64,000 nt of DNA from Pseudomonas sp. B21-048. Lineage in GTDB: Bacteria; Pseudomonadota; Gammaproteobacteria; Pseudomonadales; Pseudomonadaceae. The stretch lies in the NCBI RefSeq assembly GCF_024748615.1, contig NZ_CP087168.1, positions 1,488,001 to 1,552,000 of the forward strand, in the 5' to 3' direction. Each line of letters opens with the position of its first letter. Position 1 is the first letter of the stretch. The notes under the pieces were generated by a model. The model saw only the letters and a program-made list of their open reading frames with translations. It made no database searches and was not told the DNA's origin. Below, piece by piece: positions 9,939 through 26,163 of the stretch. Made by a program: the position numbers and the translations under genes.

Positions 9939-10101
9939 GTCCTGCGCAATTGGCTCACTTCCTGCAAGTCACCTGAATATCGCCATAAAACCTTCACCCC
10001 AATGGCGTGAACGGCTCAATGGCTGCGGGTAAATGATGTGCATCTGGCGGTTCGCGACCCTTGCGGGGTTGCCGGAACGCGCGAAGAGCAAGAGGACAGC
10101 G
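9939..10101 (+). promoter_or_regulatory. leader region of the CDP-sugar operon
   Basis: This 163-base stretch has no coding sequence that I support. It follows the REP-like hairpin and precedes rfbF, so it is the natural place for a promoter of the rfbF-led operon. I see no strong sigma-70, sigma-54 or FliA match in it. The rfbF Shine-Dalgarno AGAGGA is at its end. Confidence 0.25.
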
Positions 10102-10875
10102 ATGAAGGCAGTAATTCTGGCAGGTGGTCTCGGCACGCGGATCAGCGAAGAGTCGCACCTCAAGCCCAAGCCGATGATCGAGATCGGCGGCAAGCCAATT
10201 CTTTGGCACATCATGAAACAGTACTCCGCCCACGGGATTCATGACTTCGTGATCTGCCTTGGCTACAAGGGCTATGCGATCAAGGACTTCTTCGCCAATT
10301 ACTTCCTGCACACTTCCGACGTCACCTTCGACATGCGCAACAACCGCATGGACGTGCATCAGAACTACAGCGAGCCGTGGAGCGTCACGCTCATCGACAC
10401 CGGCGAGGAAACCATGACCGGTGGCCGCTTGCTGCGCGCCGGCCGTTACCTCAAGGATGAAGACGCCTTCTGTTTTACCTACGGCGACGGCGTCTCCGAT
10501 ATCAATATCCGTCAACTGGTGGACTACCACAGCGCCCACGGTCGTCTGGCGACCGTTACTGCCGTACAACCGCCGGGCCGTTACGGCGCCCTGGAGCGTC
10601 ACGGCGATCAGGTGCTCGGTTTCACCGAGAAGCCCCGTGGCGACGGTGGCTGGATCAATGGCGGTTTCTTTGTGCTTTCACCGAAAGTGCTGTCGTACAT
10701 CGGCGGTGATGACACCACTTGGGAAGCCGAGCCCTTGGCTCGTCTGGCCCAGGATGAACAATTGAAGGCCTTCGAGCATGAAGGCTTCTGGCATCCGATG
10801 GACACCCTGCGTGACAAGAACCACCTCGAAGCGTTGTGGCAGAGTGGGGAGGCCCCATGGAAGCAATGGGCCTGA
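10102..10875 (+). CDS. rfbF: RfbF, glucose-1-phosphate cytidylyltransferase
   Basis: 257 residues, exactly the usual RfbF/DdhA length. It makes CDP-glucose from CTP and glucose 1-phosphate. The nucleotidyltransferase signature is present ([13 protein letters not shown], then [16 protein letters not shown]), as is YGDGVSD. The ATG at 10102 is chosen because it begins the family motif (MKAVILAGG) and has AGAGGA upstream; an upstream in-frame extension lacks similarity. The 3' end overlaps rfbG, so the two are translationally coupled. Confidence 0.95.
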
Positions 10876-11939
10876 GTCCGGAGTTCTGGCGTGGCAAACG
10901 GGTTCTGCTGACCGGCCATACGGGTTTCAAGGGCAGCTGGCTGACGTTGTGGCTGCAAAGTCTCGGTGCCGAGGTCTGCGGGTTTTCGCTCGATCCGTCC
11001 ACCGAACCGAGCCTGTTCGAATTGGCCCGAGTGCATGAGGGCATCAACGATCAGCGCGGCGACCTGCGTGATCTCGGCGCCTTACTGGAATTGATGACCG
11101 AAGTGCAGCCGGAAATCGTCCTGCACCTGGCGGCCCAACCACTGGTGCGCGAAGGCTATCGCGATCCGCTCGGCACCTATTCCAGCAATGTCATGGGCAC
11201 TCTCAACCTGCTCGAAGCGATCCGCCAGGTCGGCGGTGTGCGCGCCTGCGTGCTGGTGACCACCGACAAGGTCTACGCCAACAAGGAGTGGCTGTGGCCG
11301 TACCGCGAGGACGAAGCGCTGGGCGGTCACGACCCTTACAGCAGCAGCAAGGCTTGCTGTGAATTGTTGGCACAGTCTTACGCCGCGTCGTTTTTCCCGG
11401 TGGACAAGTACGCCGAACACGGTCTGGCGTTGGCCACTGCGCGCGCCGGTAACGTGCTGGGCGGTGGGGACTTCGCGCCGGAGCGCTTGATTCCTGATGT
11501 GCTCAAGGCCTGGTCCGCAGACAAGCCTGTGACCCTGCGCTACCCGCAAGCCGTGCGCCCTTGGCAGCACGCCCTGGAGCCGCTGGCCGGTTATCTGCAA
11601 TTGGCCGCTGGCCTCTATGAGCAAGGCCCGGCATTTGCCGGCGCGTGGAACTTCGGCCCGAGCGAAGCTGATATGTGCAGCGTCGGCGAAGTGGTCGAGC
11701 TGCTCGCCAGCCGCTGGCCGCAAGCGCGCGGCTTGCGCATCGAACCGAGTGATTTGCATGAGGCCGGTCTGTTGCGCCTGGACAGCAGCCGCGCCCGGCA
11801 ACGGTTGGCCTGGCAGCCGCGCTGGTCGTTGCAGCAGTGCCTGATCCAGACCCTCGATTGGCACTTGGCGTGGCAGAACGGCGATGACATGCGCACGGTG
11901 ACCTTGAATCAATTGAATCTCTATAGGGAACGGTCATGA
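10857..11939 (+). CDS. rfbG: RfbG, CDP-glucose 4,6-dehydratase
   Basis: 360 residues, an extended short-chain dehydrogenase. The NAD-binding motif is [10 protein letters not shown], the catalytic threonine region is VTTDKVYAN and the Tyr-Lys pair is in DPYSSSKAC. It converts CDP-glucose to CDP-4-keto-6-deoxyglucose. The ATG at 10857 is chosen because GGGAGG lies five bases before it; a second ATG at 10866 is too far from that site. It overlaps rfbF by 19 bases and ends in an ATGA overlap with the next gene. No rfbH homologue (C3 deoxygenase) is in the window, so the product keeps its 3-hydroxyl. Confidence 0.95.
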
Positions 11940-12496
11940 CTGATTTCACGCTCCAGGCACTGGAGCTTGAGGGGTTGTATCTGATCCGGCAAAAAGTGTT
12001 CTGCGACGACCGTGGCCGGTTTGCCCGACTGTTTTGCCAGACCCGTCTGATGTCGCAGGGCCGCCCGTTTGCCATCCGTCAGATCAACCATTCGCGCACG
12101 GTCGAAAAGGGCAGTGTGCGGGGCCTGCATTACCAGAAAGCCGGCTATGCAGAGTCCAAGCTGATCACCTGCGTACGCGGTGCGGTGTGGGACGTGGTGG
12201 TGGATCTGCGGCCCCAGTCACCGACGTATTTGCAGTGGCATGCAGAAGAGTTGCGGGCCGACGATGGGCGCAGTCTGTTGATCCCGGCAGGTTTTGCCCA
12301 TGGCTTTCAATCCCTGAGCGACGATTCGGAAGTGCTTTATCTGACGGACGCGGACTATGCGCCGGATCATGAGGCCGGCCTTTCGGTCAGCGATCCGGCG
12401 TTGTCGATCCCGTGGCCATTGCCCGTCAAGAACTTGTCGCCCAAGGATGCGAGCCATCCATTGCTGGACAAGGATTTCACCGGGGTTGAACTGTGA
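11936..12496 (+). CDS. RfbC-like NDP-4-keto-6-deoxyhexose 3(,5)-epimerase
   Basis: 186 residues of the dTDP-4-dehydrorhamnose 3,5-epimerase cupin family. Family landmarks are VRGLHYQ (catalytic His region), VWDVVVDLR and IPAGFAHGFQ. No dTDP-sugar genes (rmlA/B/D) are nearby; instead it is the third gene after rfbF-rfbG, so its likely substrate is CDP-4-keto-6-deoxyglucose. Epimerisation at C3, C5 or both cannot be told from sequence. ATGA overlap with rfbG and GTGA overlap with the next gene indicate one operon. Confidence 0.85.
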   Translation: MTDFTLQALELEGLYLIRQKVFCDDRGRFARLFCQTRLMSQGRPFAIRQINHSRTVEKGSVRGLHYQKAGYAESKLITCVRGAVWDVVVDLRPQSPTYLQWHAEELRADDGRSLLIPAGFAHGFQSLSDDSEVLYLTDADYAPDHEAGLSVSDPALSIPWPLPVKNLSPKDASHPLLDKDFTGVEL

Positions 12497-13365
12497 CAGG
12501 CCCCACCACGACCGTGTTGGTCACTGGCGCTACCGGTTTTGTCGGTCGGCATCTGGTCAGTGCCCTGCTCGCCAAAGGCTTCAAGGTGCGTGCGGTGTCG
12601 CGCAGTCTTGAAGCGGCACGTGCGATGCCATGGTTCGCTGATGTCGAGTTTGTCGCGGTGGATTTGCATGCGCCGGATCTGAATGTGGAAAGCCTGACCC
12701 GCGGCGTGGATGCCATCGCGCATCTGGCGTGGGCCGGCCTGCCGAACTATCAGGCGCTGTTCCATTTCGAGCAAAACCTGCCGCTGGATTACGGGTTTCT
12801 CAAACGGGTAATCGCCGCGGGTGTCAGCCAGGTGCTGGTTACCGGGACCTGTTTCGAGTACGGGCTGCAAAGCGGCCCGCTGGACGAGTCGGTGACCGCT
12901 CGACCTTGTACACCTTATGGCCTGGCCAAACACACCTTGCGTCTGTTCCTTGAAGCCTTGCAGCGTGAGCACACGTTTACTTTGCAGTGGGCACGCCTGT
13001 TTTACCTGCATGGCGAGGGGCAGAACCCCAACAGCTTGCTGGCCAGTCTTGACCGGGCCATCGATGCCGGTGACATCCAGTTCAATATGTCGATGGGCGA
13101 TCAGTTGCGCGACTACCTGGAAATCACGGCGGCTGCCTCTCAACTGGCCTCGCTGATCACCCATCGCGATGTTGGTGGCGTGATCAACTGTTGCAGTGGC
13201 CGGCCTGTATCCGTGCGGGCCCTGGTCGAACAGCGTGTGCGCCAGCGCCAATCCTCCATCGTCCTGAATCTTGGGCACTACGGTTATTCCGCCCATGAAC
13301 CTATGGCGTTTTGGGGCGTTGCCCAGCGGATTTCGCAACTGACGGGTGAAGAACATGCAGCATGA
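12493..13365 (+). CDS. NAD(P)-dependent epimerase/4-ketoreductase for a CDP-deoxysugar
   Basis: 290 residues, extended SDR family. The Rossmann motif GATGFVGRHL is near residue 11; TGTCFEYG carries the catalytic Ser/Thr region and YGLAKHT the YxxxK pair. In this context it most likely reduces the 4-keto group of the epimerised, possibly methylated, CDP sugar. GTG start overlapping the previous stop (GTGA). A 4-epimerase role is the alternative. The final codons overlap the methyltransferase gene. Confidence 0.75.
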   Translation: MTGPTTTVLVTGATGFVGRHLVSALLAKGFKVRAVSRSLEAARAMPWFADVEFVAVDLHAPDLNVESLTRGVDAIAHLAWAGLPNYQALFHFEQNLPLDYGFLKRVIAAGVSQVLVTGTCFEYGLQSGPLDESVTARPCTPYGLAKHTLRLFLEALQREHTFTLQWARLFYLHGEGQNPNSLLASLDRAIDAGDIQFNMSMGDQLRDYLEITAAASQLASLITHRDVGGVINCCSGRPVSVRALVEQRVRQRQSSIVLNLGHYGYSAHEPMAFWGVAQRISQLTGEEHAA

Positions 13366-14425
13366 ACTCTATCGGGCGATCGGGCTGCCGGTGCTGCAGA
13401 ACCGCACCTTTACTACGGCCGAACAGGCCCAGGCGTCTGGCAGCGCGGATATCGTGCTGGTGCAAGACAGTCAGAGCGGACTGATCTCCAATCAGGCCTT
13501 TGACGCCAGCAAACTCAGCTACGACGTCGATTATCAAAACGAACAGGCTCATTCGGTGCAGTTCCAGCGGCACTTGAATCATGTCGAAGCAATCCTGGCC
13601 CGGCATTTCAAGGGTAAAAGCCTCATCGAAGTCGGCTGTGGCAAAGGCTACTTCCTGGAGATGCTTCGGGGGCTCGGCTATGCCATCACCGGGATCGACC
13701 CGTCCTATGAAGGGGACAATACCGAAGTGATCAAGGCCCCCTTCACCCGGGAACTGGGGCTGGCCGCCGACGCGATTGTCCTGCGCCATGTGCTGGAACA
13801 TATCAGCGATCCGGTCAGTTTCCTGGCTGAAATTGCCAGTGCCAACCATGGCGGGCAGATTTACATCGAGGTGCCGTGCTTCGACTGGATTGTCGAGCAC
13901 AACGCTTGGTTCGATGTTTTCTACGAACACGTGAATTACTTCCGCCTTGAGGATTTGCGCGCAATGTTTGAAACGGTGCACGAGGCGGGGCACCTTTTCG
14001 GTGGTCAATACCTGTACATCGTTGCGGACTTGTCGACGTTGCGCCGTATGCCGGCCGAGGCACCGTCGTTGCTGACGCTGTCGGAACATTTCACCGCCAG
14101 CCTCGACCGCGCCGTGCAGATCATCCAGGCCGCGCCCGAGCAGGGTTCGGCAATCTGGGGCGCGTCGTCCAAAGGCGTGATTTATTCGCTGTTTCTGCAG
14201 CGCGCGGGTGTGGCAGTGGATCGCGTGGTGGATATCAACCCGGCCAAACAGGGCCGATATTTGCCCCTGAGCGGCGTGCGCGTGTCCTCGCCGCAAGAGG
14301 CCATGGATGCCTTGCCCGAAGGCGCCAACCTGTTTGTGATGAACTCCAATTACCTCGAAGAAATCAAGCGGATGACCGGTGGACGCTACGTCTATCACGC
14401 CGTCGACAGCGCTTCGTTCCAGTGA
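13355..14425 (+). CDS. TylCIII/NovU-type sugar C-methyltransferase with degenerate zinc domain
   Basis: 356 residues. The order matches sugar 3-C-methyltransferases: N-terminal zinc-binding-like region (about 12-70), class I SAM domain (LIEVGCGKGYFLEM near 90; VLRHVLEHI), and a C-terminal domain with WGASSKGVIYS near 265 and HAVDS at the end. In the N-terminal region the usual CxxCG is DSQSGL and no cysteine occurs before the SAM motif, so the zinc ligands are gone. Predicted to methylate C3 of a CDP-4-ketohexose. ATG 13355 is chosen; a GTG at 13346 is possible. It overlaps the previous gene by 11 bases. Confidence 0.75.
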   Translation: MQHELYRAIGLPVLQNRTFTTAEQAQASGSADIVLVQDSQSGLISNQAFDASKLSYDVDYQNEQAHSVQFQRHLNHVEAILARHFKGKSLIEVGCGKGYFLEMLRGLGYAITGIDPSYEGDNTEVIKAPFTRELGLAADAIVLRHVLEHISDPVSFLAEIASANHGGQIYIEVPCFDWIVEHNAWFDVFYEHVNYFRLEDLRAMFETVHEAGHLFGGQYLYIVADLSTLRRMPAEAPSLLTLSEHFTASLDRAVQIIQAAPEQGSAIWGASSKGVIYSLFLQRAGVAVDRVVDINPAKQGRYLPLSGVRVSSPQEAMDALPEGANLFVMNSNYLEEIKRMTGGRYVYHAVDSASFQ

Positions 14426-14442
14426 CCATTGAGAATTTTGAA

Positions 14443-15180
14443 ATGACCGACAACAGCATCAACAAAGCCTTCGAAGCCGAATGCCGGGAACAGATCGCCC
14501 AGCAAGGTGACGACCAGAAACTCACCGGCCTGGCCCGGGATTTCTTCAACGAATCGGCGAAGCACAAATACAGCTACCACTTCTCGTGGATGGGACGTCC
14601 GATCATCCAGCTGCCCCAAGACATGATGGCCATGCAAGAAATCATCTGGCAGGTCAAACCGGATCTGGTCATCGAGTGTGGCATCGCTCACGGCGGTTCG
14701 ATCATCTACTACGCCTCCTTGCTGGAGCTGCAAGGCCACGGTGAAGTGCTGGGCATCGACCTCGACATTCGTGCGCACAACCGCGAAGCCATCGAAAGCC
14801 ATCCGATGAGCAAGCGCATCAAGATGATCGAAGGTTCGAGCATTGATCCTGCGATCGCCGCGCAAGTACGTGCCATTGCCGAAGGCAAAAAGGTCATCCT
14901 GGTACTGGACTCCAACCATACCCACGATCACGTGCTGGAAGAATTGCGCCTGTACGCACCGCTGGTGTCGGTGGACAGCTACTGCGTGGTGATGGACACC
15001 GTGGTTGAAGACATGCCGGCCGATTTCTTCCCGGATCGCCCATGGGGCCCGGGCGACAACCCGAAAACTGCCGTATGGAAGTACCTGGAAGAAAACAAGG
15101 ACTTCGAGATCGATCAGCAGATGCAAAATAAACTGCTGATCACCGTGGCGCCGGACGGCTATCTGCGTCGCGTTCGTTAA
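14443..15180 (+). CDS. CmcI/rhamnosyl O-methyltransferase-family protein
   Basis: 245 residues. DLVIECGIAHGGSIIYYASLLEL is the SAM-binding segment, followed by VLVLDSNHTHDHVLEEL. This is the family often annotated as cephalosporin hydroxylase (CmcI) that includes rhamnosyl O-methyltransferases of bacterial glycolipids. In this cluster the likely job is O-methylation of the deoxyhexose, on the nucleotide sugar or on the glycan. The ATG at 14443 is preferred; a GTG at 14422 overlapping the previous stop is the alternative and would add seven residues. Confidence 0.75.
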   Translation: MTDNSINKAFEAECREQIAQQGDDQKLTGLARDFFNESAKHKYSYHFSWMGRPIIQLPQDMMAMQEIIWQVKPDLVIECGIAHGGSIIYYASLLELQGHGEVLGIDLDIRAHNREAIESHPMSKRIKMIEGSSIDPAIAAQVRAIAEGKKVILVLDSNHTHDHVLEELRLYAPLVSVDSYCVVMDTVVEDMPADFFPDRPWGPGDNPKTAVWKYLEENKDFEIDQQMQNKLLITVAPDGYLRRVR

Positions 15181-15231
15181 TCAAAAGTGGTTTCAGGTTC
15201 TTGGCGATTGGCCGGTTGTGGGGATAGAAAG

Positions 15232-18165
15232 ATGCAGGTTAAAAACAGTGCTCAAAACAACGTTACACCGCTGAACGAGCGGTTTACGGTGGTGGTGATT
15301 TCCCACAACCGGAACGCGTTCCTGCGGCGCACCTTGCAGTACTACAGCAGCTTTCCCTGCACGGTTCTGGTTCTGGACTCCTCCCTTGAGGGTGATGAGA
15401 ACATGACCCGGGACTTCCCGGCGGTCGACTATCGCCACTTGCCGCAATACACCTACAAGGGGCTGCAGGATAAACTCACCTACGGCGTCAATCAGGTCAC
15501 CACGCCATACATGGTGTTCGCCGCCGATGACGACTTCCTGCTGCACCGCGCACTGAACGAATCGGTGGAGTTTCTCGAAGCCAATCCCGACTACGGCCTG
15601 TGCCATGGCTACGGGATCATGTACCTGGCCCGTGCTACTGAAGTGAACTACTTCCGCCGCGACCGCAAGGTTCATGAGGATTACAACTCGGAGCAGGCCG
15701 AAGACCGTGTCGTGCGGTTCATGGATAATTTCCTGCCGCCGTTCTATGCGGTCACCCGTACCGATCTGCTGCAACAGTGGTACAGCCTGCTGCCACCTGG
15801 CACCAGTTTCGAATGGCAGGAAATCGGCCATGCCTTCTACCTGCTGGCCTGCGCGAAGGCACGGATCCTGCCGATTCCGTTTGCTGTGCGGGAAATGAAC
15901 TATGGCGCCTCGGACCACAACACCAACGTGTTGACGGTGCTGACTTTCAAAGACGCCAAAAGCGTTGCCGAGCGCGAGCAGTTTGCCGAATTCCTGGCCT
16001 CGATCCCGACGCCACTCAGCGACAAGGGGCCGGTCCAGGCCAAGCAGATCGCCCTGGACAGTTTTACCGCCATGGCCGATTGCCTGATCGAAGGTCGCTC
16101 GCTCAAAGGCACCCTGATTATTCGCTCGGCCTGGCGCGAGGCGGGGGAAGAGCCGATTCGCTCGTTCGGCCCCGAGCAATTCGTCGAAATGCCGTTCTAC
16201 AACAAACCGGTGTTCGACCTGCTGACCGAGCTCGAATTCCTGCTGCATGCCATGCCTGCCGGGCGCCTGCAACTTCAGGAACTGGAAGGCATTCTGCTCA
16301 AGCAGCATGAGTTGATGCAAGTTCACCCCAATGACACCGACCGCACTGTGCGTAGCCGGTTGTGGGAGGCCTTGAGCCTGAACCTGTTCAACCGGGCCGT
16401 GGTCAAGCGCCTGGCGGAGTCGTTGAAGGACAGCGAAGAGCCGGAAGAAGGCCTCAAGCTGCAAGCCTGGGCCGAGCGACTGAACGCTTTACCAGGTCAG
16501 CAAGACCGCCGACTGTTCGAGAACATGCCGTCCGGCCGGTTGCTGAACTGGCTCGAAGCGCGCAACCCGCAGGCCACACAGCTCAAGGCGATCGCTGCAC
16601 AGTTGGCCAAGCATAATGGCGGTCCTCAGTTCGGCATTCTGTTGCTGGATCTGGACGCCGACAGGGTCAAGTTGCAGGCGACCTTCGACAGTTTGGTCGG
16701 TGGCCATTGCAAGGCATTCAACCTGGTGGTGTTCACTACCGGTGAATTACCGGCAACCACGTCCGTGCGCGATACCGTGCATTTTGTCAAAGTCAGCACA
16801 AGCAATTATGTGGAGCGCATCAACCAGATCGTCACCCAGTCCACCGCCGATTGGCTGTTGCTGGCCGAGGCCGGTGATCAGTTCACTGCCAGCGGTTTGC
16901 TGCGCGCCAGCCTTGAGCTGGCCGGTGCCGAGGGCGTTCGTGCAGTGGCAATGGACGAGATTCAGCGTCAGGCCTGCGGCGCTCTGGCGGATGTATTCCG
17001 CCCTGGGGTCAACCTCGACCTGCTGCAAACCGTGCCGTCGTTGATGGCGCGCCACTGGTTGATCCAGCGTGATGTGTTGGCTCAGGCCAAAGGTTTCTCG
17101 ACCGAGTACCCCCAGGCGCTGGAGTTCGATCTGTTGCTGCGCCTGATCGAGGACGGTGGCCTGGCAGGGCTGGCGCATCTGGCCGAACCCTTGCTGATTT
17201 GCAATGCCCCGGCAGAAGAATCCAGCGCTCAGGAGCGTCAGGTGCTGACCCGCTCTCTGGCGGCGCGCGGCTATCGCGCTCAGGTCAGCTCGGCACTGCC
17301 GCTGACTTACCAGATCGACTATCAACACGCCGAACGGCCGCTGGTGTCGATCATCCTCCAGAGCCAGGACAACCTTGAGTCGCTGCAACGCGCGCTGGTC
17401 AGTGTGCTGCAGCGCACCCGTTATCAGCGTCACGAAGTGCTGATTGCCGACAACCACAGCCAATCCGAAGAACTCGCAACCTGGTTGAGCAGCCTTGAAG
17501 GCAAGGGCGATCGCCTTCGTGTAATGCGCAGCGGTCAGCGCCTGAGTGCCTCGGCGCTGAACAATTTGGCCTGTGCCCAGGCCAAGGGGAACTACCTGGT
17601 ATTACTGTCGGCGGAATCCGAAGTGGTCAATGCCAATTGGCTCGACGCCATGCTCAACCAGGCCCAGCGTCCTGAAGTCGGCATCGTTGGCGCGAAACTG
17701 ATGGACATGCATGGCGTCACCACGCAGGCCGGCTTGGTCCTGGGTTTGAATGGCGATATCGGCTCGGTCTTTGTCGATGAACGTAAGGACGCCAAGGGCT
17801 ACATGAACGGCCATCAGGTCGAGCAGAACTACTCGGCGGTGTCCGGTGCCTGTCTGATGATTCGCAAGGACGTGTTCGACGCGGTGGGGGGGCTGGACGA
17901 AGAGCATTTCGACGAAGCTTTTGGCGACATCGACCTGTGCCTGAAAGTCGCCGATGCGGGTTATCTGACTGTCTGGACACCCCAAGCGCAACTGTTGCAT
18001 CCGGGCGTGCTGCCTGAGGCAGTCCAGGCTCGTGTCGCTTTGCGCGACAAGTGGCAATCGCGCTTCGAACAGGACTCAGCCTACAACCAGAACCTGGCCT
18101 TGACCGGCAAGGGCTTTACTCTCAGTGAACCGACCCGCGTGAACTGGGCGCAGTTGCTCGCATAA
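15232..18165 (+). CDS. second Fgt-type multidomain glycosyltransferase
   Basis: 977 residues. N-terminal GT-A domain (about 18-250; FTVVVISHNRN, VLDSS, AADDDFLL with DDD at 99-101), a mainly helical stretch, a degenerate GT2-like region (about 465-690) and a C-terminal GT2 module (about 703-960; RPLVSIILQSQD, FGDIDLCLKV). The third module has SAES (793-796) where a DxD is expected. It resembles P. syringae Fgt2 in size and place. It lacks the C-terminal GT-B domain of the 6265 protein. ATG 15232 is chosen for its GGGGATAG upstream. A GT for the adjacent CDP sugar is a reasonable inference. Confidence 0.8.
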   Translation: MQVKNSAQNNVTPLNERFTVVVISHNRNAFLRRTLQYYSSFPCTVLVLDSSLEGDENMTRDFPAVDYRHLPQYTYKGLQDKLTYGVNQVTTPYMVFAADDDFLLHRALNESVEFLEANPDYGLCHGYGIMYLARATEVNYFRRDRKVHEDYNSEQAEDRVVRFMDNFLPPFYAVTRTDLLQQWYSLLPPGTSFEWQEIGHAFYLLACAKARILPIPFAVREMNYGASDHNTNVLTVLTFKDAKSVAEREQFAEFLASIPTPLSDKGPVQAKQIALDSFTAMADCLIEGRSLKGTLIIRSAWREAGEEPIRSFGPEQFVEMPFYNKPVFDLLTELEFLLHAMPAGRLQLQELEGILLKQHELMQVHPNDTDRTVRSRLWEALSLNLFNRAVVKRLAESLKDSEEPEEGLKLQAWAERLNALPGQQDRRLFENMPSGRLLNWLEARNPQATQLKAIAAQLAKHNGGPQFGILLLDLDADRVKLQATFDSLVGGHCKAFNLVVFTTGELPATTSVRDTVHFVKVSTSNYVERINQIVTQSTADWLLLAEAGDQFTASGLLRASLELAGAEGVRAVAMDEIQRQACGALADVFRPGVNLDLLQTVPSLMARHWLIQRDVLAQAKGFSTEYPQALEFDLLLRLIEDGGLAGLAHLAEPLLICNAPAEESSAQERQVLTRSLAARGYRAQVSSALPLTYQIDYQHAERPLVSIILQSQDNLESLQRALVSVLQRTRYQRHEVLIADNHSQSEELATWLSSLEGKGDRLRVMRSGQRLSASALNNLACAQAKGNYLVLLSAESEVVNANWLDAMLNQAQRPEVGIVGAKLMDMHGVTTQAGLVLGLNGDIGSVFVDERKDAKGYMNGHQVEQNYSAVSGACLMIRKDVFDAVGGLDEEHFDEAFGDIDLCLKVADAGYLTVWTPQAQLLHPGVLPEAVQARVALRDKWQSRFEQDSAYNQNLALTGKGFTLSEPTRVNWAQLLA

Positions 18166-18195
18166 GCCTGGCTGACAGGTAAAAGGACTCAAGGC

Positions 18196-19197
18196 ATGTT
18201 CAACGGTAAATCGATTTTCATCTCCGGCGGCACCGGCTCGTTCGGGCGCAATTTCATCCGCCGGCTGCTGGAGCAATACCAGCCCAAGCGCGTGGTGGTG
18301 TTTTCCCGCGATGAGCTCAAGCAGTACGAGATGCAGCAGACGTTCAACGCGCCGTGCATGCGTTATTTCATCGGTGATGTGCGCGACGCCGAGCGTTTGC
18401 GTCAGGCCATGCGCGGCATCGATTACGTCGTGCATGCCGCGGCCCTGAAACAAGTGCCGGCGGCGGAATACAACCCCACCGAATGCATCCGCACCAACGT
18501 CAACGGCGCAGAAAATATCATTGCCGCGGCCATCGACAACGGCGTGAAGAAAGTCGTCGCGCTGTCCACCGACAAGGCTGCCAGCCCAATCAACCTGTAC
18601 GGCGCGACCAAGCTGCTGTCGGACAAACTGTTTGTGGCCGCCAACAACATTGCCGGCGAACAGCAGACTCGCTTTGCCGTGGTGCGCTACGGCAACGTTG
18701 CCGGGTCGCGCGGGTCGGTGGTGCCGTTCTTCAGCAAACTGATAGGCGAGGGCGCCAAAGAGCTGCCGATCACCGACGAGCGCATGACACGTTTCTGGAT
18801 CACCCTCGATCACGGTGTGAAGTTTGTGCTCGACAGTTTCGCCCGCATGCACGGCGGTGAAGTATTTGTGCCGAAGATTCCGTCGATTCGCATCGTCGAT
18901 CTGGCGCGGGGCATGGCTGAACATTTGCCGCACAAAAATGTTGGCATTCGGCCGGGGGAAAAACTCCATGAGTTGATGGTGCCGCTGGATGACGCGCGCA
19001 TGACCCTGGAATTCGAGGATCACTACACCATTCAGCCGTCGATTCGTTTCACCAGCGTCGACGTGGATTTTGCCGTCGACAAACTGGGCGAGCAGGGCCG
19101 TTCGGTGAGCGAAGATTTCGAGTACCGCTCCGACACCAACCCGCACTTCCTCTCGGTCGGGCAAATCGCTGACCTGCACGCGGAGCTGTCGGCATGA
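18196..19197 (+). CDS. pseB: PseB, UDP-GlcNAc 4,6-dehydratase (5-inverting)
   Basis: 333 residues, SDR family. ISGGTGSFGRNF binds the cofactor; STDKAASPINLYGATK carries the catalytic Asp-Lys and Tyr135/Lys139. It performs the first step of pseudaminic acid synthesis, giving UDP-2-acetamido-2,6-dideoxy-arabino-hexos-4-ulose. AAAAGGA lies before the ATG. It opens a tight cluster with pseC, pseF, pseG-H and pseI, and its last four bases overlap pseC (ATGA). Confidence 0.95.
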   Translation: MFNGKSIFISGGTGSFGRNFIRRLLEQYQPKRVVVFSRDELKQYEMQQTFNAPCMRYFIGDVRDAERLRQAMRGIDYVVHAAALKQVPAAEYNPTECIRTNVNGAENIIAAAIDNGVKKVVALSTDKAASPINLYGATKLLSDKLFVAANNIAGEQQTRFAVVRYGNVAGSRGSVVPFFSKLIGEGAKELPITDERMTRFWITLDHGVKFVLDSFARMHGGEVFVPKIPSIRIVDLARGMAEHLPHKNVGIRPGEKLHELMVPLDDARMTLEFEDHYTIQPSIRFTSVDVDFAVDKLGEQGRSVSEDFEYRSDTNPHFLSVGQIADLHAELSA

Positions 19198-20357
19198 TTC
19201 CCTACGGTCGGCAAAGCCTCGATCAGGCCGACATCGACGCGGTGGTTGCCGTGTTGCAGTCAGACTGGCTGACGCAAGGGCCGACCATCGAGCGTTTCGA
19301 ACAGGCCATGGCCGAGCGTTGCCAGGCCGATTTCGCGGTGGCGGTGTGCAATGCCACGGCGGCGTTGCACATTGCCTGCCTCGCCGCCGGCCTCGGGCCC
19401 GGCGATCGCTTGTGGACCACGCCGAACACTTTCCTGGCCTCGGCCAACTGCGGTCGCTACTGCGGCGCCGAGGTCGACTTCGTTGATATCGATCCGCTGA
19501 CCTGGAACCTTGACGCTTACACCTTGGCGTCGAAACTTGAAATCGCCGAGCGCGACGGCAAACTACCGAAAGTGTTGGTGGCGGTGGCGTTCTCCGGACA
19601 GAGCTGCGACATGCGCATGATCGCCGAACTGGCCGAGCGCTATGGTTTTACGGTGATCGAAGATGCCTCCCACGCCGTCGGTGCGTTCTACGCCGGGCGT
19701 CCGGTGGGTTGTGGCGAATTCGCGGCGATGACGGTGTTCAGTTTCCACCCGGTGAAGATCATCACCAGTGCCGAAGGCGGCATGGTGCTGACCAATCGAC
19801 CGGAACTGGCCGAGCGCTTGCAGCGCCTGCGCAGCCACGGCATGACCCGTGATCCCGTGCAGATGACCGAACCCAGCCACGGCCCCTGGTACTACCAGCA
19901 AGTAGAACTGGGCTTCAATTACCGCATCACCGACCTGCAAGCAGCCCTTGGTCTGTCGCAGCTGAACAAGCTCGATGGCTTCATCGAGCGTCGGCGTGAG
20001 CTGGCGGCGCGTTATGACCGGTTGCTGGCGTATCTGCCGCTAACCTTGCCCTACGCGCAGCCGGAGGCCGAGTCAGCGTGGCATTTGTACGTGGTGCGCT
20101 TGCAGGCGGAACGGATCACCCTCAGCCATCGACAGGTATTCGAAGGCTTGCGGGCGGCCGGGGTCGGTGTGAACTTGCACTATATTCCGCTGCACTTGCA
20201 GCCGTATTATCGCGACCTGGGTTTTGCCGAGGGGGATTTCCCCCAGGCCGAACGTTATTACGCCGAGGCCATCAGCCTGCCGCTGTTTCCTCTGCTGAGC
20301 GATGAACAACAGGATTATGTAGTCGAGCAATTGCGACGACTGATCCTTGAAGAATAG
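19194..20357 (+). CDS. pseC: PseC, UDP-4-amino-4,6-dideoxy-AltNAc transaminase
   Basis: 387 residues, DegT/DnrJ/EryC1/StrS aminotransferase fold. The PLP lysine is in FSFHPVKIITSAEGG (Lys188), preceded by VIEDASHAVG. Typical C-terminal blocks are present (GVNLHYIPLHLQPYY). It aminates the PseB product at C4. It starts inside the pseB stop (ATGA) and is followed after 14 bases by pseF. Confidence 0.95.
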   Translation: MIPYGRQSLDQADIDAVVAVLQSDWLTQGPTIERFEQAMAERCQADFAVAVCNATAALHIACLAAGLGPGDRLWTTPNTFLASANCGRYCGAEVDFVDIDPLTWNLDAYTLASKLEIAERDGKLPKVLVAVAFSGQSCDMRMIAELAERYGFTVIEDASHAVGAFYAGRPVGCGEFAAMTVFSFHPVKIITSAEGGMVLTNRPELAERLQRLRSHGMTRDPVQMTEPSHGPWYYQQVELGFNYRITDLQAALGLSQLNKLDGFIERRRELAARYDRLLAYLPLTLPYAQPEAESAWHLYVVRLQAERITLSHRQVFEGLRAAGVGVNLHYIPLHLQPYYRDLGFAEGDFPQAERYYAEAISLPLFPLLSDEQQDYVVEQLRRLILEE

Positions 20358-20371
20358 TGACTTGAGGAGTA

Positions 20372-21073
20372 GTGACTCTGAGCAGTGTTGCGATCATTCC
20401 GGCCCGTGGCGGCAGCAAACGAATCCCGCGCAAGAACCTCAAGCCATTCAATGGCATGCCGATGATCGTCCGTTCGATTCGCACGGCGCTGGAATCGAAT
20501 CTGTTCGACCGGGTGATCGTCAGCACTGACGATGAAGAAATCGCCGAGGTCGCACGGGCCCATGGCGCTCAGGTGCCGTTCATGCGGCCCGCGACACTTG
20601 CCGACGATTTCACCGGGACCGCCGCGGTGATTGTGCATGCCTTGAAGCAATTGCCGGCGTTCGACTATGCCTGCTGCGTCTACGCGACGGCGCCCCTGTT
20701 GCAGGCGCGTTATCTGCGTCAGGGGCATGAGTTGCTGGTGCAGCATCCGGGCAAGTCTTTCGCGTTTTCAGTCGCCGGTTTTGGCTTCCCGGTACAACGG
20801 GCCTTGACCCTCGACGAGCAGGGCGCCTTGACCTCGCTCTACCCGGAATTTCGCGATACCCGTTCCCAGGACTTGCCCGAGGCTTTTCAAGATGCCGGCC
20901 AGTTCTATTGGGGGCGCAGCGAAGCCTGGTTGCGGGGCGATGTGCTGTTCTCGCCGGCAAGCCTGCCGGTGATTCTGCCGCGGCATCTGGTGCAGGACAT
21001 CGACACCCTTGAAGACTGGAAGCGCGCCGAATACCTCTACGCCGCGCTCAAGGCCGGCGGGGAACTGCAATGA
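20372..21073 (+). CDS. pseF: PseF, pseudaminic acid cytidylyltransferase
   Basis: 233 residues. The CMP-sugar synthetase signature IIPARGGSKRIPRKNLKPF is near the N-terminus. It activates pseudaminic acid as CMP-Pse, the donor for the Maf-type transferase at 24871. The GTG at 20372 is the first in-frame start but lies only two bases after GAGGAG; a CTG two codons on would have better spacing, so the exact start is uncertain. The 3' end overlaps pseG (ATGA). Confidence 0.93.
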   Translation: MTLSSVAIIPARGGSKRIPRKNLKPFNGMPMIVRSIRTALESNLFDRVIVSTDDEEIAEVARAHGAQVPFMRPATLADDFTGTAAVIVHALKQLPAFDYACCVYATAPLLQARYLRQGHELLVQHPGKSFAFSVAGFGFPVQRALTLDEQGALTSLYPEFRDTRSQDLPEAFQDAGQFYWGRSEAWLRGDVLFSPASLPVILPRHLVQDIDTLEDWKRAEYLYAALKAGGELQ

Positions 21074-22569
21074 GAGTGCTGATCCGCGCTGATGCGTCGC
21101 CGACCATTGGCAGCGGCCACATTGCCCGTTGCCTGACCCTGGCCAGGGTGTTGCGCAAACAGGGCACACACGTTGCTTTCGCCTGTCGTCTGTTGCCGGG
21201 GCATCGGCTGGACAGTCTGCAGGCTGAGGATTTCGAGACCTTCGCGCTGCCGGAGCGCTATCCCGATGAAGACCCGCAGCAGGCCATCGAGTCAATGCTG
21301 CCGTGGCAGGCGGACATTGCGGCGCTGGGGCAAGCCTTGGAAAGTCATCCAACTTTCGACTGGATCATCGTCGACCACTATGGACTCGACCATCATTGGC
21401 AGACTGCCGCGCGCCGATGGGCACCCAGGATTGCGGCGGTGGATGACCTGGCTACTCGGCAATACAGCGTCGATCTGCTGCTCAATCAAAATCTGTCGGG
21501 CACGCCAGAGGCCTATGCCTCGTTGCTGACGCCCGACTGCCAGACTTTACTAGGCCCACGTTTTGCCCTGCTGCGCGATGAGTTCTGCTGCCCGGCGATT
21601 GAGATCAAACCTCGGGCCAGGCGAGTGCTGGTGAACTTCGGCGGCTTCGATGCGGCCATGCAGACCCACCACGCGATGTTGGCACTGGCGGACCTCCATG
21701 AGCTGGAGGTCGATTTCGTGGCGGGTGCCGACAACCCGGCCTGGGAGCAGATGCAGGCGCTGGCGGCGTATCGTCCGAACTGGCGCCTGCACAGTTTTGT
21801 CAGCGACTTCTACCGGCTGATGACTGAGGCTGATCTGTTCATCGGTGCCGGTGGCGGTACCAGTTGGGAGCGGGCGGCCTTGGGGCTGCCGACGATCTGC
21901 ATTGCGGTCTCCAATAATCAGCAGGCCAACGGTGAGGTGATGGCGACCTCGGGTGCTCATGTGTTCCTGGGTAGCCGCGAGCGGGTCAGCGTCGAGCAGT
22001 TGCATCAGGCCATCGGTTTTGTCGTGGGCAATCAGGCACTTCGTCAAAGTCTGGCCGAACGTTCGCGGCAGTTGGTCGATGGCCGTGGGGCGCAGCGGGT
22101 GGCGGCGGCGCTGGCGGGGGCGGTACTGCAGATTCGTCAGGCCACACAGGATGATGCGCAACTGTTGTTCGACGGGCGCAATGCCGAAGCGGTTCGGCGC
22201 TGGTCGCCGGATACGCACGTCATCGACTGGCAATGGCATCAGGCTTGGCTGGCGACGAGCCTGAGCAATCCACAACGGTTGATGTTGATCGCCGAGGCAG
22301 ATGACGGCCCGGTCGGTGTGCTGCGTTATGACCTCGACGATGCGCGGGCCGAAGTGTCGATTTATTTGTTCGAAGGCCGATTCGGCCTGGGCTGGGGCCT
22401 AGCGCTGCTGGTGCGGGGCGAGGCTTTCATCACCGCTCATTGGCCACGACTGGAAGCCATCACCGCTCAGGTGCTGCCGGGCAACCAAGCCTCGCTGAAA
22501 GTATTCCGCGAGGCAGGTTTCACTCAGAGTGCTTGTACGTTCACACGCGTTTTAAAGGATCACCCATGA
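21070..22569 (+). CDS. pseG: PseG-PseH fusion: UDP-sugar hydrolase plus GNAT N-acetyltransferase
   Basis: 499 residues. Residues 1 to about 345 are PseG, the GT-B-like hydrolase that removes UDP; RADASPTIGSGHIARC contains the expected His17, and IGAGGGTSWERAALGLPTIC the donor-binding loop. From about 353 a GNAT domain follows (LQIRQATQDDAQLLF, GLGWGLALLVRGE, VLPGNQASLKVFREAGF), matching PseH, which N-acetylates C4 before PseG acts. No separate pseH is present in the cluster. Length exceeds standalone PseG (about 280-340). ATGA overlaps at both ends with pseF and pseI. Confidence 0.9.
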   Translation: MRVLIRADASPTIGSGHIARCLTLARVLRKQGTHVAFACRLLPGHRLDSLQAEDFETFALPERYPDEDPQQAIESMLPWQADIAALGQALESHPTFDWIIVDHYGLDHHWQTAARRWAPRIAAVDDLATRQYSVDLLLNQNLSGTPEAYASLLTPDCQTLLGPRFALLRDEFCCPAIEIKPRARRVLVNFGGFDAAMQTHHAMLALADLHELEVDFVAGADNPAWEQMQALAAYRPNWRLHSFVSDFYRLMTEADLFIGAGGGTSWERAALGLPTICIAVSNNQQANGEVMATSGAHVFLGSRERVSVEQLHQAIGFVVGNQALRQSLAERSRQLVDGRGAQRVAAALAGAVLQIRQATQDDAQLLFDGRNAEAVRRWSPDTHVIDWQWHQAWLATSLSNPQRLMLIAEADDGPVGVLRYDLDDARAEVSIYLFEGRFGLGWGLALLVRGEAFITAHWPRLEAITAQVLPGNQASLKVFREAGFTQSACTFTRVLKDHP

Positions 22570-23618
22570 CCAGTTTCAAAATAGGCAACCGCTCGATCGG
22601 TGCCGATGCGCCGCCGTTCATCATTGCCGAGATGAGCGGCAACCATAACCAGTCGCTGGCCGTGGCGCTGCACATCGTCGAAGCCGCGGCCAAGGCCGGC
22701 GCGCATGCCTTGAAGCTGCAAACCTATACCGCCGAGACCATGACGCTGGATCTGTCCGAAGGCGAGTTCTTCATCAATGATCCCAACAGCCTGTGGGCCG
22801 GTTCTTCGTTGTACGCGCTGTACGAGAAGGCTCACACGCCGTGGGAATGGCACGCGCCGATCTTCGCCCGGGCTAAAGAACTGGGCATGCTGGCGTTCTC
22901 CACGCCGTTCGATGACACGGCGGTGGACTTCCTCGAAAGCCTCGACGTGCCGGCCTACAAGATCGCCAGTTTCGAGAACACCGATCTGTCGTTGATCCGG
23001 CGGGTGGCTGCCACCGGCAAGCCGTTGATCATCTCCACCGGCATGGCCAGCATCGCCGAGCTCGATGAAACCGTGCGCGCCGCCCGTGAGGCCGGTTGCA
23101 AGGACCTGGTGTTGCTCAAGTGCACCAGCACGTACCCGGCGACGCCGGCCAACAGCAATGTGCGTACGATTCCTCATCTGCGGGAGTTGTTTGGCTGTGA
23201 AGTCGGTTTGTCCGATCACTCGATGGGCGTCGGGGTGTCTGTCGCCGCTGTAGCGTTGGGAGCGACGGTAGTAGAAAAACATTTCACCCTTGATCGTGCC
23301 GCCGGTGGCGTGGACGCCAGTTTCTCCCTGGAACCGGCCGAACTCGCCAGCCTGGTGATCGAAACCGAACGCGCCTGGCAGGCCATGGGCCAGGTGCATT
23401 ATGGCGTGACAGAGGCTGAGCGTAAGTCTCTGGTCTACCGCCGGTCGCTGTATGTCACTCAAGACATGGTTGCCGGGGAGCTTTTCACTGTCGCCAATCT
23501 GCGGGCCATCCGGCCTGGCTTTGGACTGGCGCCCAAACACGCTGAAACCCTTATGGGACGCCGCGCCCGCCAGGCTATCAAGCGCGGAACAGCGCTGGAC
23601 TGGTCGTTGGTCGAATGA
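22566..23618 (+). CDS. pseI: PseI, pseudaminic acid synthase
   Basis: 350 residues, NeuB family. PPFIIAEMSGNHNQSL, KLQTYTAETMTLD and AFSTPFDDTAVDFLE belong to the TIM-barrel catalytic part; the C-terminal SAF antifreeze-like domain ends GRRARQAIKRGTALDW. It condenses PEP with 6-deoxy-AltdiNAc. The ATG at 22566 overlaps the pseG-H stop (ATGA), and earlier in-frame codons lie inside the fusion gene. It completes the Pse pathway (B, C, H, G, I, F). Confidence 0.95.
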   Translation: MTSFKIGNRSIGADAPPFIIAEMSGNHNQSLAVALHIVEAAAKAGAHALKLQTYTAETMTLDLSEGEFFINDPNSLWAGSSLYALYEKAHTPWEWHAPIFARAKELGMLAFSTPFDDTAVDFLESLDVPAYKIASFENTDLSLIRRVAATGKPLIISTGMASIAELDETVRAAREAGCKDLVLLKCTSTYPATPANSNVRTIPHLRELFGCEVGLSDHSMGVGVSVAAVALGATVVEKHFTLDRAAGGVDASFSLEPAELASLVIETERAWQAMGQVHYGVTEAERKSLVYRRSLYVTQDMVAGELFTVANLRAIRPGFGLAPKHAETLMGRRARQAIKRGTALDWSLVE

Positions 23619-24870: not shown

Positions 24871-26163
24871 ATGAGCGAGTTCTTTGAGCGCAACGCCGAG
24901 GTCATACAGCGCCGCTGGCCGTTGCTGTCTGCGCGCTTGCTGGTTGAAGACGCAAGTCTGTTGCAGGCTGATCTGGTCGAGGGACTGGGCTCGACCCTGA
25001 GCATTAACGGCATTCAACTGACCAGTCGCCACGACCGCACCCGCGAAGCTCAGCTTCAGGCCGAAAGCCTGCCGGTCGACAGTCCGGTGCTGCACGTTTA
25101 CGGCACAGGGCTGGGTGATCTACAACTGGAACTGCTGCAGCGTTCGGAGCTGATTCAGCTGCATGTACATATCCTCAATGGCGCCGTGTTTGCGCTGGTC
25201 TTGCAATTGCTCGATCAGCAGCCGTGGCTCAGCGATTCGCGGGTTGAGCTGCACTACGCCGGTGATTTGGTTGAAATTTGTTTGCCGTTCTTTGCCTTGC
25301 CGTCCGAGCTGGTGTTGGCCGATGACTTCAATGCCAAGATCCGCGATCGGCTGATCAGCGAAACTCACCTGACCTTTAACAATCGTGAGTTCGACCCTCA
25401 GGCTCCCGACATCATCGAGCGCTTGCAGGCTAGCCAGGAGCTGGTGCAGACCGATCGCGATGTGATCGAGTTGTTCGGTTCGCGTAAAGGACAGGAGGTA
25501 TTCGTCATTGCCACGGGCCCGAGCCTTGAGCAGCACTTCGAGACCTTGCGCGCAATTCGCAATCAGGCCGAGCGACCGTTGTTCATTTGTGTCGATACGG
25601 CCTACCGACCGCTGCTCGATCACGGGGTCCGCCCTGATGTGGTGGTCAGCATCGACCAGCGTATTTCGGTATGCCACCTGCCGTCCGAAGGCACCGCCGA
25701 TATTACCCTGGCCTATATGCCCATGGTCGACCCTCAGGTGCTGGCGGCCTGGCAAGGGCCGCGCTATGCCAGTTACTCCGCCAGCCCGATCTATCAACAG
25801 TTGCGTCAGCAATGGCCCAAGGGCGAACTGTATGTCGGCGGCAGTGTGATTCATCCTGCAGTGGACCTGGCGGTGAAGATGGGCGCGGCGCAGATCACCC
25901 TGTTCGGTGCCGACTTCGCCTTTCCCAACAATAAGACCCACGCGGGCTGGAACGATGGCGACCTGGGGCCACAACTGTGCGCCGCCAAACACTGGGTGCT
26001 GGATGGTAACGGTCAACGCATCAAGACCCAGCTCAACTTCCGCAGTTACCTATGTGAGCTGGAGCGCTTTATCGCAGGGCATCCTCAGGTGCGCTTCTAT
26101 AACAGCAGCCGGGCAGGGGCGATGATCGCCGGCACGGCTTTTCATCCGGAGCTGGCGTCATGA
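24871..26163 (+). CDS. Maf-type motility-associated factor glycosyltransferase (DUF115/MptE-like)
   Basis: 430 residues. The core from about 209 (VFVIATGPSLEQH, FICVDTAYRPLLDHGVRPDVVVSID, LFGADFAFPNNKTHAG) is the MptE-like/DUF115 domain of Maf proteins, which transfer pseudaminic or legionaminic acid onto flagellin. That fits the complete Pse pathway just upstream, so it is the probable Pse transferase. GAGG before the ATG. The upstream terminator leaves no clear promoter. It ends in an ATGA overlap with a small gene. Confidence 0.88.
   Translation: MSEFFERNAEVIQRRWPLLSARLLVEDASLLQADLVEGLGSTLSINGIQLTSRHDRTREAQLQAESLPVDSPVLHVYGTGLGDLQLELLQRSELIQLHVHILNGAVFALVLQLLDQQPWLSDSRVELHYAGDLVEICLPFFALPSELVLADDFNAKIRDRLISETHLTFNNREFDPQAPDIIERLQASQELVQTDRDVIELFGSRKGQEVFVIATGPSLEQHFETLRAIRNQAERPLFICVDTAYRPLLDHGVRPDVVVSIDQRISVCHLPSEGTADITLAYMPMVDPQVLAAWQGPRYASYSASPIYQQLRQQWPKGELYVGGSVIHPAVDLAVKMGAAQITLFGADFAFPNNKTHAGWNDGDLGPQLCAAKHWVLDGNGQRIKTQLNFRSYLCELERFIAGHPQVRFYNSSRAGAMIAGTAFHPELAS

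What the first reader, a model, noticed from the sequence alone, without database searches (positions are those of the whole stretch)
10102..15180. Predicted CDP-linked 3-C-methyl, O-methyl 6-deoxyhexose pathway (vinelose-like) inside a flagellin glycosylation island
Six coupled genes encode glucose-1-P cytidylyltransferase, CDP-glucose 4,6-dehydratase, an RfbC-like epimerase, an SDR reductase, a TylCIII/NovU-type C-methyltransferase and a CmcI/rhamnosyl O-methyltransferase-type protein. No RfbH deoxygenase is present in the window, so the 3-OH is kept. Established: CDP-vinelose (6-deoxy-3-C-methyl-2-O-methyl-L-talose) was isolated from Azotobacter vinelandii, in the same family as Pseudomonas. 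Inference: this set is what such a sugar needs, and the sugar would be placed on flagellin. To my knowledge this link has not been described.
Basis: partly seen in the sequence, partly recalled or inferred. Interest (0 to 1): 0.85.

Follow-up and report, generated by a model that had tools for sequence, protein, structure and literature searches.

The report
Swappable flagellar sugar cassette lacking C-methyltransferase

Summary
The six genes are real, intact, overlapping, and lie between flgL and pse/maf/fliC. They encode a CDP-glucose to CDP-4-keto-6-deoxyglucose pathway with an RmlC epimerase, a reductase and a CmcI-type methyltransferase. The key inference fails here. The gene read as a TylCIII/NovU C-methyltransferase (MT-X) lacks the zinc domain and one active-site Tyr. 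In sister loci a separate, canonical 3-C-methyltransferase (C-MT) sits between rmlC and the reductase; the window's genome has none. Of 388 Pseudomonas genomes, 119 carry C-MT and 79 MT-X: both 68, MT-X only 11 (window included), C-MT only 51. The window differs from close relatives by a sharp 2.2-kb allelic replacement between flanks that are 91-99% identical. An Azotobacter genome (A. vinelandii by inference) has ddhA-ddhB-rmlC-C-MT, an SDR and cmcI beside flagellin, with its only CDP-glucose 4,6-dehydratase over cut-off and no MT-X: a strong candidate for CDP-vinelose. Most likely product here: a CDP-6-deoxy-L-hexose, O-methylated by CmcI and methylated at an unknown site by MT-X. The proposed 174-Da test would not distinguish this from vinelose.

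The parts
10102..10875 (+). ddhA/rfbF: glucose-1-phosphate cytidylyltransferase
   Evidence: TIGR02623 457.9 bits over cut-off 300.25
10836..11939 (+). ddhB/rfbG: CDP-glucose 4,6-dehydratase
   Evidence: TIGR02622 474.4 bits over cut-off 278.45; the only one over cut-off in the genome
11936..12496 (+). rmlC-like 3,5- (or 5-) epimerase, type-B allele
   Evidence: PF00908, TIGR01221 162.6 vs 155.75; the 11 C-MT-less loci of the genus sample form one clade, support 0.996, among 131 tips
12493..13365 (+). SDR (extended), putative 4-ketoreductase
   Evidence: PF01370 95 bits; YGLAK motif with Tyr142; Thr140 largely tracks absence of C-MT
13346..14425 (+).
   Evidence: PF13489 + PF08484, no PF08421; Phe192 at the Tyr222 place of TcaB9 in 79 of 79
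14422..15180 (+). cmcI-like probable sugar O-methyltransferase (PF04989)
   Evidence: 319.6 bits; in the core of 123 of 130 sampled loci
11900..14100 (+). allelic cassette (type B): 65-79% nt identity to L012 and L078 in 300-bp bins (87% in the bin that straddles the right edge), with flanks of 91-99% (L012) and 87-97% (L078); in those strains a C-MT gene stands between rmlC and SDR
   Evidence: sliding nt identity
6265..9837 (+). multi-domain glycosyltransferase (GT2 family plus a GT1-like end)
   Evidence: PF00535 twice, PF13524 just under its cut-off
15187..18165 (+). glycosyltransferase, TIGR04440 domain + GT2
18196..23618 (+). pseudaminic acid genes pseB, pseC, pseF, pseG (fused to a GNAT domain), pseI
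   Evidence: TIGR03589, 03588, 03584, 03590, 03586, all over cut-off; GNAT domain
24871..26163 (+). Maf-type (PF01973) protein, probable flagellin nonulosonate transferase
   Evidence: 121.9 bits; the Maf role is recalled
26684..27535 (+). fliC flagellin
   Evidence: PF00669/PF00700

Best explanation
The six genes make a CDP-activated 6-deoxyhexose that keeps its 3-OH and carries O-methylation but no 3-C-methyl branch. Glc-1-P goes to CDP-Glc (DdhA), then to CDP-4-keto-6-deoxy-Glc (DdhB), is epimerised toward the L-series (RmlC), reduced at C4 (SDR), methylated by the CmcI-type enzyme (O-2 is the best guess) and further methylated by MT-X at a site not yet known (O-4 is a guess). Neighbouring glycosyltransferases would place it on the flagellar filament, alone or with pseudaminic acid. 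The rmlC-SDR-MT-X part is one allele (type B) of an exchangeable cassette. The common alleles carry a canonical 3-C-methyltransferase and are the vinelose-like versions. Shown: gene families, gene order, alleles, sharp breakpoints, absence of C-MT. Inferred: substrates, positions of methylation, configuration, attachment to flagellin.
For: No C-MT in the genome. Canonical C-MT lies between rmlC and SDR in 69 of 80 named loci; it has PF08421+PF13489+PF08484 (3 of 3 scanned) and a near full-length match to TcaB9/MtmC-type enzymes (L012). In 388 genomes C-MT and MT-X occur together in 68, MT-X alone in 11, C-MT alone in 51, so the two are not interchangeable. MT-X shows 0 fixed differences between loci with (68) and without (11) C-MT, so there is no sign that it took over the missing step; RmlC shares no residue between the groups at 133, 137 and 138 (catalytic Tyr141 nearby), and SDR differs at 140 (Tyr142 nearby). 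The Azotobacter genome with the vinelose-type set has C-MT, a single CDP-glucose 4,6-dehydratase over cut-off, and no MT-X found. Cassette breakpoints near 11,900 and 14,100. MT-X occurs in 79 of 98 loci with a reductase and in 0 of 31 loci where a 4-aminotransferase replaces the reductase, as expected if it needs the 4-OH (not corrected for shared ancestry).
Against: MT-X keeps the equivalents of TcaB9 Tyr76, His181, Glu224 and His225 in 79 of 79 and a PF08484 domain, so C-methylation by MT-X (C3 or C5) cannot be excluded. The type-B RmlC is a single clade, so its differences may be founder effects. One C-MT-bearing locus (L148) has the SDR Thr140, and the Azotobacter L101 reductase has Thr at that place too. 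Two AT loci (L131, L151) hold distant MT-X-like genes (29% and 26%) that I did not count as MT-X. The 4-O idea rests on co-occurrence alone. No glycan has been measured.
Confidence: 0.66

Rival explanations
1. One reading: MT-X is the 3-C-methyltransferase and the product is vinelose-like (3-C-methyl plus O-methyl) in this very strain.
For: MT-X is homologous to the C-MT family (hhalign probability 98.8) and keeps four of five TcaB9 active-site residues; CmcI and RmlC are present; two methyls fit.
Against: No zinc domain; Tyr222 equivalent is Phe in 79 of 79; MT-X coexists with canonical C-MT in 68 of 79 genomes; no MT-X found in the Azotobacter genome with the vinelose-type set; no fixed change in MT-X where C-MT is missing.
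Confidence: 0.15
2. MT-X is a C-5 methyltransferase (NovU-like) or a C-methyltransferase at another carbon, so type A makes a doubly C-branched sugar and the window a 5-C-methyl sugar.
For: Catalytic His/Glu and C-terminal domain kept; NovU acts at C5 beside an RmlC-type epimerase (recalled).
Against: MT-X is in 0 of 31 loci with a 4-aminotransferase, although a C5 methylation at the keto stage would suit those equally.
Confidence: 0.1
3. The sugar goes to LPS or another surface glycan, not to flagellin; the location in the flagellar region is incidental.
For: Six of 130 sampled loci show no flgL, fliC, pseB or pseC in the stretch fetched; five of them have distant C-MTs of about 53%, so the pathway may serve elsewhere.
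Against: 124 of 130 loci have flgL, fliC, pseB or pseC within the stretch fetched; in two Azotobacter genomes the set also lies beside a flagellin gene.
Confidence: 0.12

Closest known systems
CDP-vinelose of Azotobacter vinelandii (sugar nucleotide structure as given by the finding and recalled; no paper on it seen)
   Same: CDP-linked 6-deoxyhexose with O-methyl; an Azotobacter genome carries ddhA-ddhB-rmlC and a cmcI homologue beside flagellin
   Different: The Azotobacter set has canonical C-MT and no MT-X was found there; the window has MT-X and lacks C-MT
TylCIII/TcaB9/MtmC family of sugar 3-C-methyltransferases (PF08421+PF13489+PF08484)
   Same: MT-X shares the SAM domain, a weak C-terminal domain and four of five active-site residues
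   Different: No zinc domain, Phe for Tyr222, partial match only
P. syringae viosamine island (dTDP-mVio; PMC3927599, passages seen)
   Same: Island for a methylated 6-deoxyhexose on flagellin; the vioM deletion gave glycans 14 lower in m/z, i.e. one methyl less
   Different: dTDP and a 4-amino sugar there; CDP and a reduced C4 here; the passages do not give VioM's family
P. aeruginosa b-type flagellin glycan (PMC11833859, passages seen)
   Same: O-linked deoxyhexose on flagellin with methylated decoration
   Different: Methyls sit on threonine (N,N-dimethyl) joined through a phosphate; no CDP-6-deoxyhexose cassette in those passages
Predicted virenose pathway (PMC3539893, passages seen)
   Same: TylCIII-type C3 methylation of an NDP-4-keto-6-deoxyhexose, proposed in silico
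   Different: GDP or dTDP route, LPS sugar, no flagellar setting in those passages

Membership tests
TylCIII/NovU sugar C-methyltransferase | N-terminal zinc-binding domain PF08421 | tested here: not met
   Absent from window MT-X and three relatives, present in three C-MTs of sister loci
TylCIII/NovU sugar C-methyltransferase | C-terminal PF08484 domain | tested here: met
   28.7 bits, cut-off 23.5; weak against 200-208 in C-MT
TylCIII/NovU sugar C-methyltransferase | Active-site Tyr76, His181, Glu224, His225 (TcaB9 numbering; roles recalled) | tested here: met
   Tyr63, His152, Glu194, His195 in 79 of 79
TylCIII/NovU sugar C-methyltransferase | Active-site Tyr222 (TcaB9 numbering; role recalled) | tested here: not met
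   Phe192 in 79 of 79; C-MT keeps Tyr in 119 of 119
TylCIII/NovU sugar C-methyltransferase | Methylates carbon of an NDP-4-keto sugar | not testable with these tools
CDP-4-keto-6-deoxyglucose pathway | Glucose-1-phosphate cytidylyltransferase plus CDP-glucose 4,6-dehydratase | tested here: met
   TIGR02623 and TIGR02622 over cut-off
CDP-3,6-dideoxyhexose pathway | RfbH 3-dehydrase | tested here: not met
   No match over cut-off in the genome
RmlC epimerase | Catalytic His and Tyr (roles recalled) | tested here: met
   His65 and Tyr141 in 83 of 83
PF04989 RMNT/CmcI | Family profile | tested here: met
   319.6 bits, cut-off 23.2
Rhamnosyl O-methyltransferase (NF045824) | Curated score | tested here: not met
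   115.8 against 400
Vinelose-type pathway | 3-C-methyltransferase with epimerase, reductase and O-methyltransferase in a CDP cluster | tested here: not met
   Window lacks C-MT; genes present in Azotobacter L100 and L101
Flagellin glycosylation island | Sugar and glycosyltransferase genes between flagellar genes | tested here: met
   flgI-L upstream, fliC-flaG-fliD downstream
Flagellin glycosylation island | Sugar found on flagellin | not testable with these tools
   Needs mass spectrometry

The most novel reading that the evidence does not exclude
Pseudomonadaceae flagellin islands carry an exchangeable CDP-sugar cassette whose alleles switch a 3-C-methyl branch on or off, and choose a 4-hydroxyl or a 4-amino group, while the flanks stay nearly identical. 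The CDP-vinelose of Azotobacter vinelandii is the product of the same kind of cassette beside its flagellin gene, so vinelose is a flagellar sugar.
Probability: 0.5. Interest if true: 0.75.

Novelty: new variant of a known kind. Interest (0 to 1): 0.58.

Why it matters
It corrects which gene would make the branched sugar. It gives a concrete single-locus candidate for the genes behind CDP-vinelose, a sugar nucleotide for which no paper at all turned up in my open-licence searches. It also shows closely related natural alleles of a flagellar glycan cassette with and without a C-methyltransferase. Flagellin is a target of plant and animal immunity and of phages, so a cassette that toggles a methyl branch on the filament is a ready natural experiment.

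Tried and rejected
Considered and rejected: (1) MT-X as the missing C-methyltransferase; see evidence. (2) C-MT lost by simple deletion in the window: rejected, because rmlC, SDR and about two thirds of MT-X are also a different allele and the C-MT-less rmlC forms one deep clade. (3) Foreign origin by composition: the cassette is 58.6% GC against 55-64% around it, not informative.

Limits and dead ends: the related-loci scan kept the best 80 of 159 by likeness to MT-X, so its 69:11 ratio is biased; the 388-genome draw is the fairer count. I took the two 388-genome searches to be the same draw; their sizes and the rows shown agree, but not all rows are printed. They used E 1e-40, so distant homologues (L131, L151) do not count as MT-X; L151 was counted as type D. 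In one search my ORF filter gave a 407-411-aa C-MT in 64 of 69 loci and only a short ORF in five (L055, L056, L065, L079, L080); a tblastn hit over at least 70% of C-MT was found in all 69. L105 lacks detectable RmlC, SDR and CmcI and was left as 'other'. SDR comparisons used 92 of 98 reductase loci; six with distant SDRs were left out. Trees are FastTree on alignments of tblastn segments; several supports are low. The Fisher test ignores shared ancestry. In one search the row for L163 is empty because only one strand was compared. Paper searches for 'vinelose', 'CDP-vinelose' with A. vinelandii and flagellin glycosylation with P. protegens gave nothing; flagellin + C-methyltransferase + glycosylation gave three papers whose titles and abstract starts do not concern this; others (island, Pseudomonas, C-methyltransferase; 20 of 239 listed; 11 listed; 2; 20 of 56 listed) showed no title on such a cassette. 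The library is open-licence PMC only, so older subscription papers are unseen.
Full report
What is there. The window lies at 1,488,001-1,552,000 of a 5.71-Mb single-contig genome; the 80 named loci kept as closest by MT-X are all Pseudomonas. Six overlapping genes run from 10,102 to 15,180. By curated models the first two are glucose-1-phosphate cytidylyltransferase and CDP-glucose 4,6-dehydratase, well over cut-off; the third is an RmlC-type epimerase just over cut-off; the fourth is an extended SDR without a specific assignment; the sixth is PF04989 (Rhamnosyl O-methyltransferase/CmcI). Upstream are flgI, flgJ, flgK, flgL and a large glycosyltransferase; downstream a second large glycosyltransferase, pseB-C-F-G-I, a FabH-like gene, a Maf-type PF01973 protein, fliC, flaG and fliD.

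The fifth gene. It has PF13489 and a weak PF08484 but no PF08421 zinc domain, and its best match among solved structures is partial. A profile of its family matches solved 3-C-methyltransferases weakly (best E 9.4e-9), and other class-I methyltransferases almost as well (4.7e-8); profile against profile with the canonical enzymes gives 98.8% probability. It is therefore a divergent cousin. I call it MT-X. Aligned to TcaB9 numbering, it keeps the places of Tyr76, His181, Glu224 and His225 and has Phe for Tyr222; this holds in 79 of 79 sampled MT-X proteins, while the canonical enzyme keeps all five, and the four zinc cysteines, in 119 of 119. The roles of those residues are recalled from the TcaB9 literature, not read here. 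A distant MT-X of an Azotobacter (L101, 31% identical) still has CxxC-type pairs, so the zinc site was probably lost in the Pseudomonas branch (inference).

The missing gene. Among 80 named Pseudomonas loci (best 80 of 159) gene order is conserved, but 69 hold an extra gene, 407-411 aa where read in full, between rmlC and the SDR. The three proteins scanned have all three domains, and that of L012 matches MtmC and TcaB9 over nearly its full length at E 5e-65 to 2e-69. The window and 11 loci (L002-L010, L041, L057) lack it. Searched with C-MT, the window's genome returns only MT-X at E 7.7e-9.

How common. In 388 Pseudomonas genomes drawn evenly from the genus, MT-X is in 79 and C-MT in 119 at E 1e-40; both in 68, MT-X only in 11 (own genome included), C-MT only in 51, neither in 258. 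I fetched all 129 other loci and typed 130 with the window: type A, C-MT + SDR + MT-X, 68; type B, SDR + MT-X without C-MT, 11; type C, C-MT + SDR without MT-X, 19; type D, C-MT + a DegT-type aminotransferase, 31, of which 25 also have a hexapeptide-repeat (acyltransferase-like) gene; other, 1. Pfam for those two genes was run on one locus (L152). The CmcI-type gene is in the core of 123 of 130. In 124 of 130 a flgL, fliC, pseB or pseC lies in the stretch fetched. C-MT and MT-X thus occur in every combination, which argues that they do different things.

A cassette exchange. Compared in 300-bp bins with L012, the window is 91-99% identical over 10,100-11,900 and 14,300-18,200, and with L078 87-97%; between about 11,900 and 14,100 both fall to 65-79%, with 87% in the bin across the right edge. 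L014, L016 and L020 show the same drop; L002, which is type B like the window, does not (82-95% there). Further out, single bins in the first glycosyltransferase also dip (80% in L012). The left edge is at the ddhB/rmlC junction; the right edge falls at about residue 251 of MT-X, where its PF08484 match begins. In trees of the named loci the 12 C-MT-less members form 1 clade for RmlC (support 0.994) and 2 each for SDR and MT-X, but 9 for DdhB and 7 for CmcI. In the genus sample the 11 C-MT-less RmlCs form one clade (0.996) among 131 tips. This looks like repeated exchange of an old alternative allele, not a recent deletion.

What the neighbours' residues say. RmlC differs with C-MT at six places: 133 (Leu/Met with; Val/Ile without), 137 (His in 120 of 120 with; Thr or Ser without) and 138 (Ser/Thr with; Asp in 11 of 11 without) share no residue between the groups; 19, 35 and 37 differ nearly so. 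The first three lie a few residues from the catalytic Tyr141. SDR shows one: position 140, two before Tyr142, is Asn in 80 of 81 with C-MT and Thr in 11 of 11 without. L163, which has C-MT but whose SDR is sister to the main C-MT-less SDR clade (support 0.92), has Asn, and the C-MT-less SDRs fall in five separate clades yet all have Thr. Against: L148 has C-MT and Thr, and the Azotobacter L101 SDR has Thr at that place. MT-X, CmcI and DdhB show none. The simplest reading is that the epimerase and reductase see a substrate with or without the 3-C-methyl, and that MT-X did not change its job where C-MT is absent.

Azotobacter. Four of 398 family genomes carry AnfD over cut-off. One of them, G056, is a single 5,366,370-bp contig with three nitrogenase-type matches; I take it to be A. 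vinelandii by inference, and its C-MT is identical to a protein named for Azotobacter. It has one CDP-glucose 4,6-dehydratase over cut-off, one C-MT, 61% identical to that of L012, and no MT-X match. They sit together: ddhA, ddhB, rmlC, C-MT, a hexapeptide-repeat gene, an SDR, cmcI, a PhyH and a TylF-type methyltransferase, next to a glycosyltransferase and a flagellin gene. G017, of the same genus label, has the full type-A order beside flagellin. Two other genomes of that label (G033, G044) and three of label g11 have no C-MT, so the set is variable there too. Vinelose is 6-deoxy-3-C-methyl-2-O-methyl-L-talose (from the finding and recall). CDP, 6-deoxy, L-epimerisation, 3-C-methyl, reduction and O-methyl each have a candidate gene in this one cluster. 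That makes it the best candidate I know of for CDP-vinelose biosynthesis. It leaves CmcI or TylF for the 2-O-methyl and no need for MT-X in vinelose. PF04989 includes a mycobacterial rhamnosyl 2-O-methyltransferase (recalled).

What the window makes. Most likely a CDP-6-deoxy-L-hexose, O-methylated by the CmcI-type enzyme and methylated elsewhere by MT-X. MT-X is in 79 of 98 loci with a reductase and in 0 of 31 with the aminotransferase (two of the 31 hold distant relatives of 26-29%), so the 4-OH is my guess for its target; this is weak evidence. Two methyls give the same 174-Da residue as vinelose, so composition analysis or NMR is needed.

Literature. Searches are listed under Tried and rejected. 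Known Pseudomonas flagellin glycans seen in passages are rhamnose with modified viosamine (PMC3927599) and a deoxyhexose with phospho-N,N-dimethylthreonine (PMC11833859). The passages seen of a Pseudomonas flagella review (PMC8036289), a glycoproteomics review (PMC12645811) and the virenose paper (PMC3539893) mention no such cassette; all other papers were seen only as listings.

Noticed in passing
   Followed up: partly
L109, L152 and other type-D loci: A DegT-type aminotransferase and, in 25 of 31 loci, a hexapeptide-repeat gene replace the reductase and MT-X, predicting a 4-amino, 3-C-methyl CDP sugar in flagellin islands.
   Followed up: partly
L103, L106, L122, L131, L137: Distant C-MT clusters (about 53% C-MT) in Pseudomonas without flgL, fliC, pseB or pseC in the stretch fetched; possibly surface polysaccharide clusters.
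   Followed up: no
window 21070-22569: PseG is fused to a GNAT acetyltransferase domain, probably PseH, so the pseudaminic acid set looks complete.
   Followed up: no
window about 14100 (MT-X residue about 251): The right recombination edge falls where MT-X's C-terminal domain match begins, so MT-X is a mosaic between alleles.
   Followed up: partly
L071 and L075: ddhA (both) and the second glycosyltransferase (L071) match in two pieces; these are split matches, not duplications, perhaps frame breaks or sequencing errors.
   Followed up: partly
L163 (G493): Hybrid locus: C-MT-type rmlC and C-MT, but SDR and MT-X close to the window's; its SDR carries the C-MT-type Asn140.
   Followed up: yes
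L105 (G222): C-MT present but RmlC, SDR and CmcI not detected in the core; possibly degraded or highly divergent.
   Followed up: no
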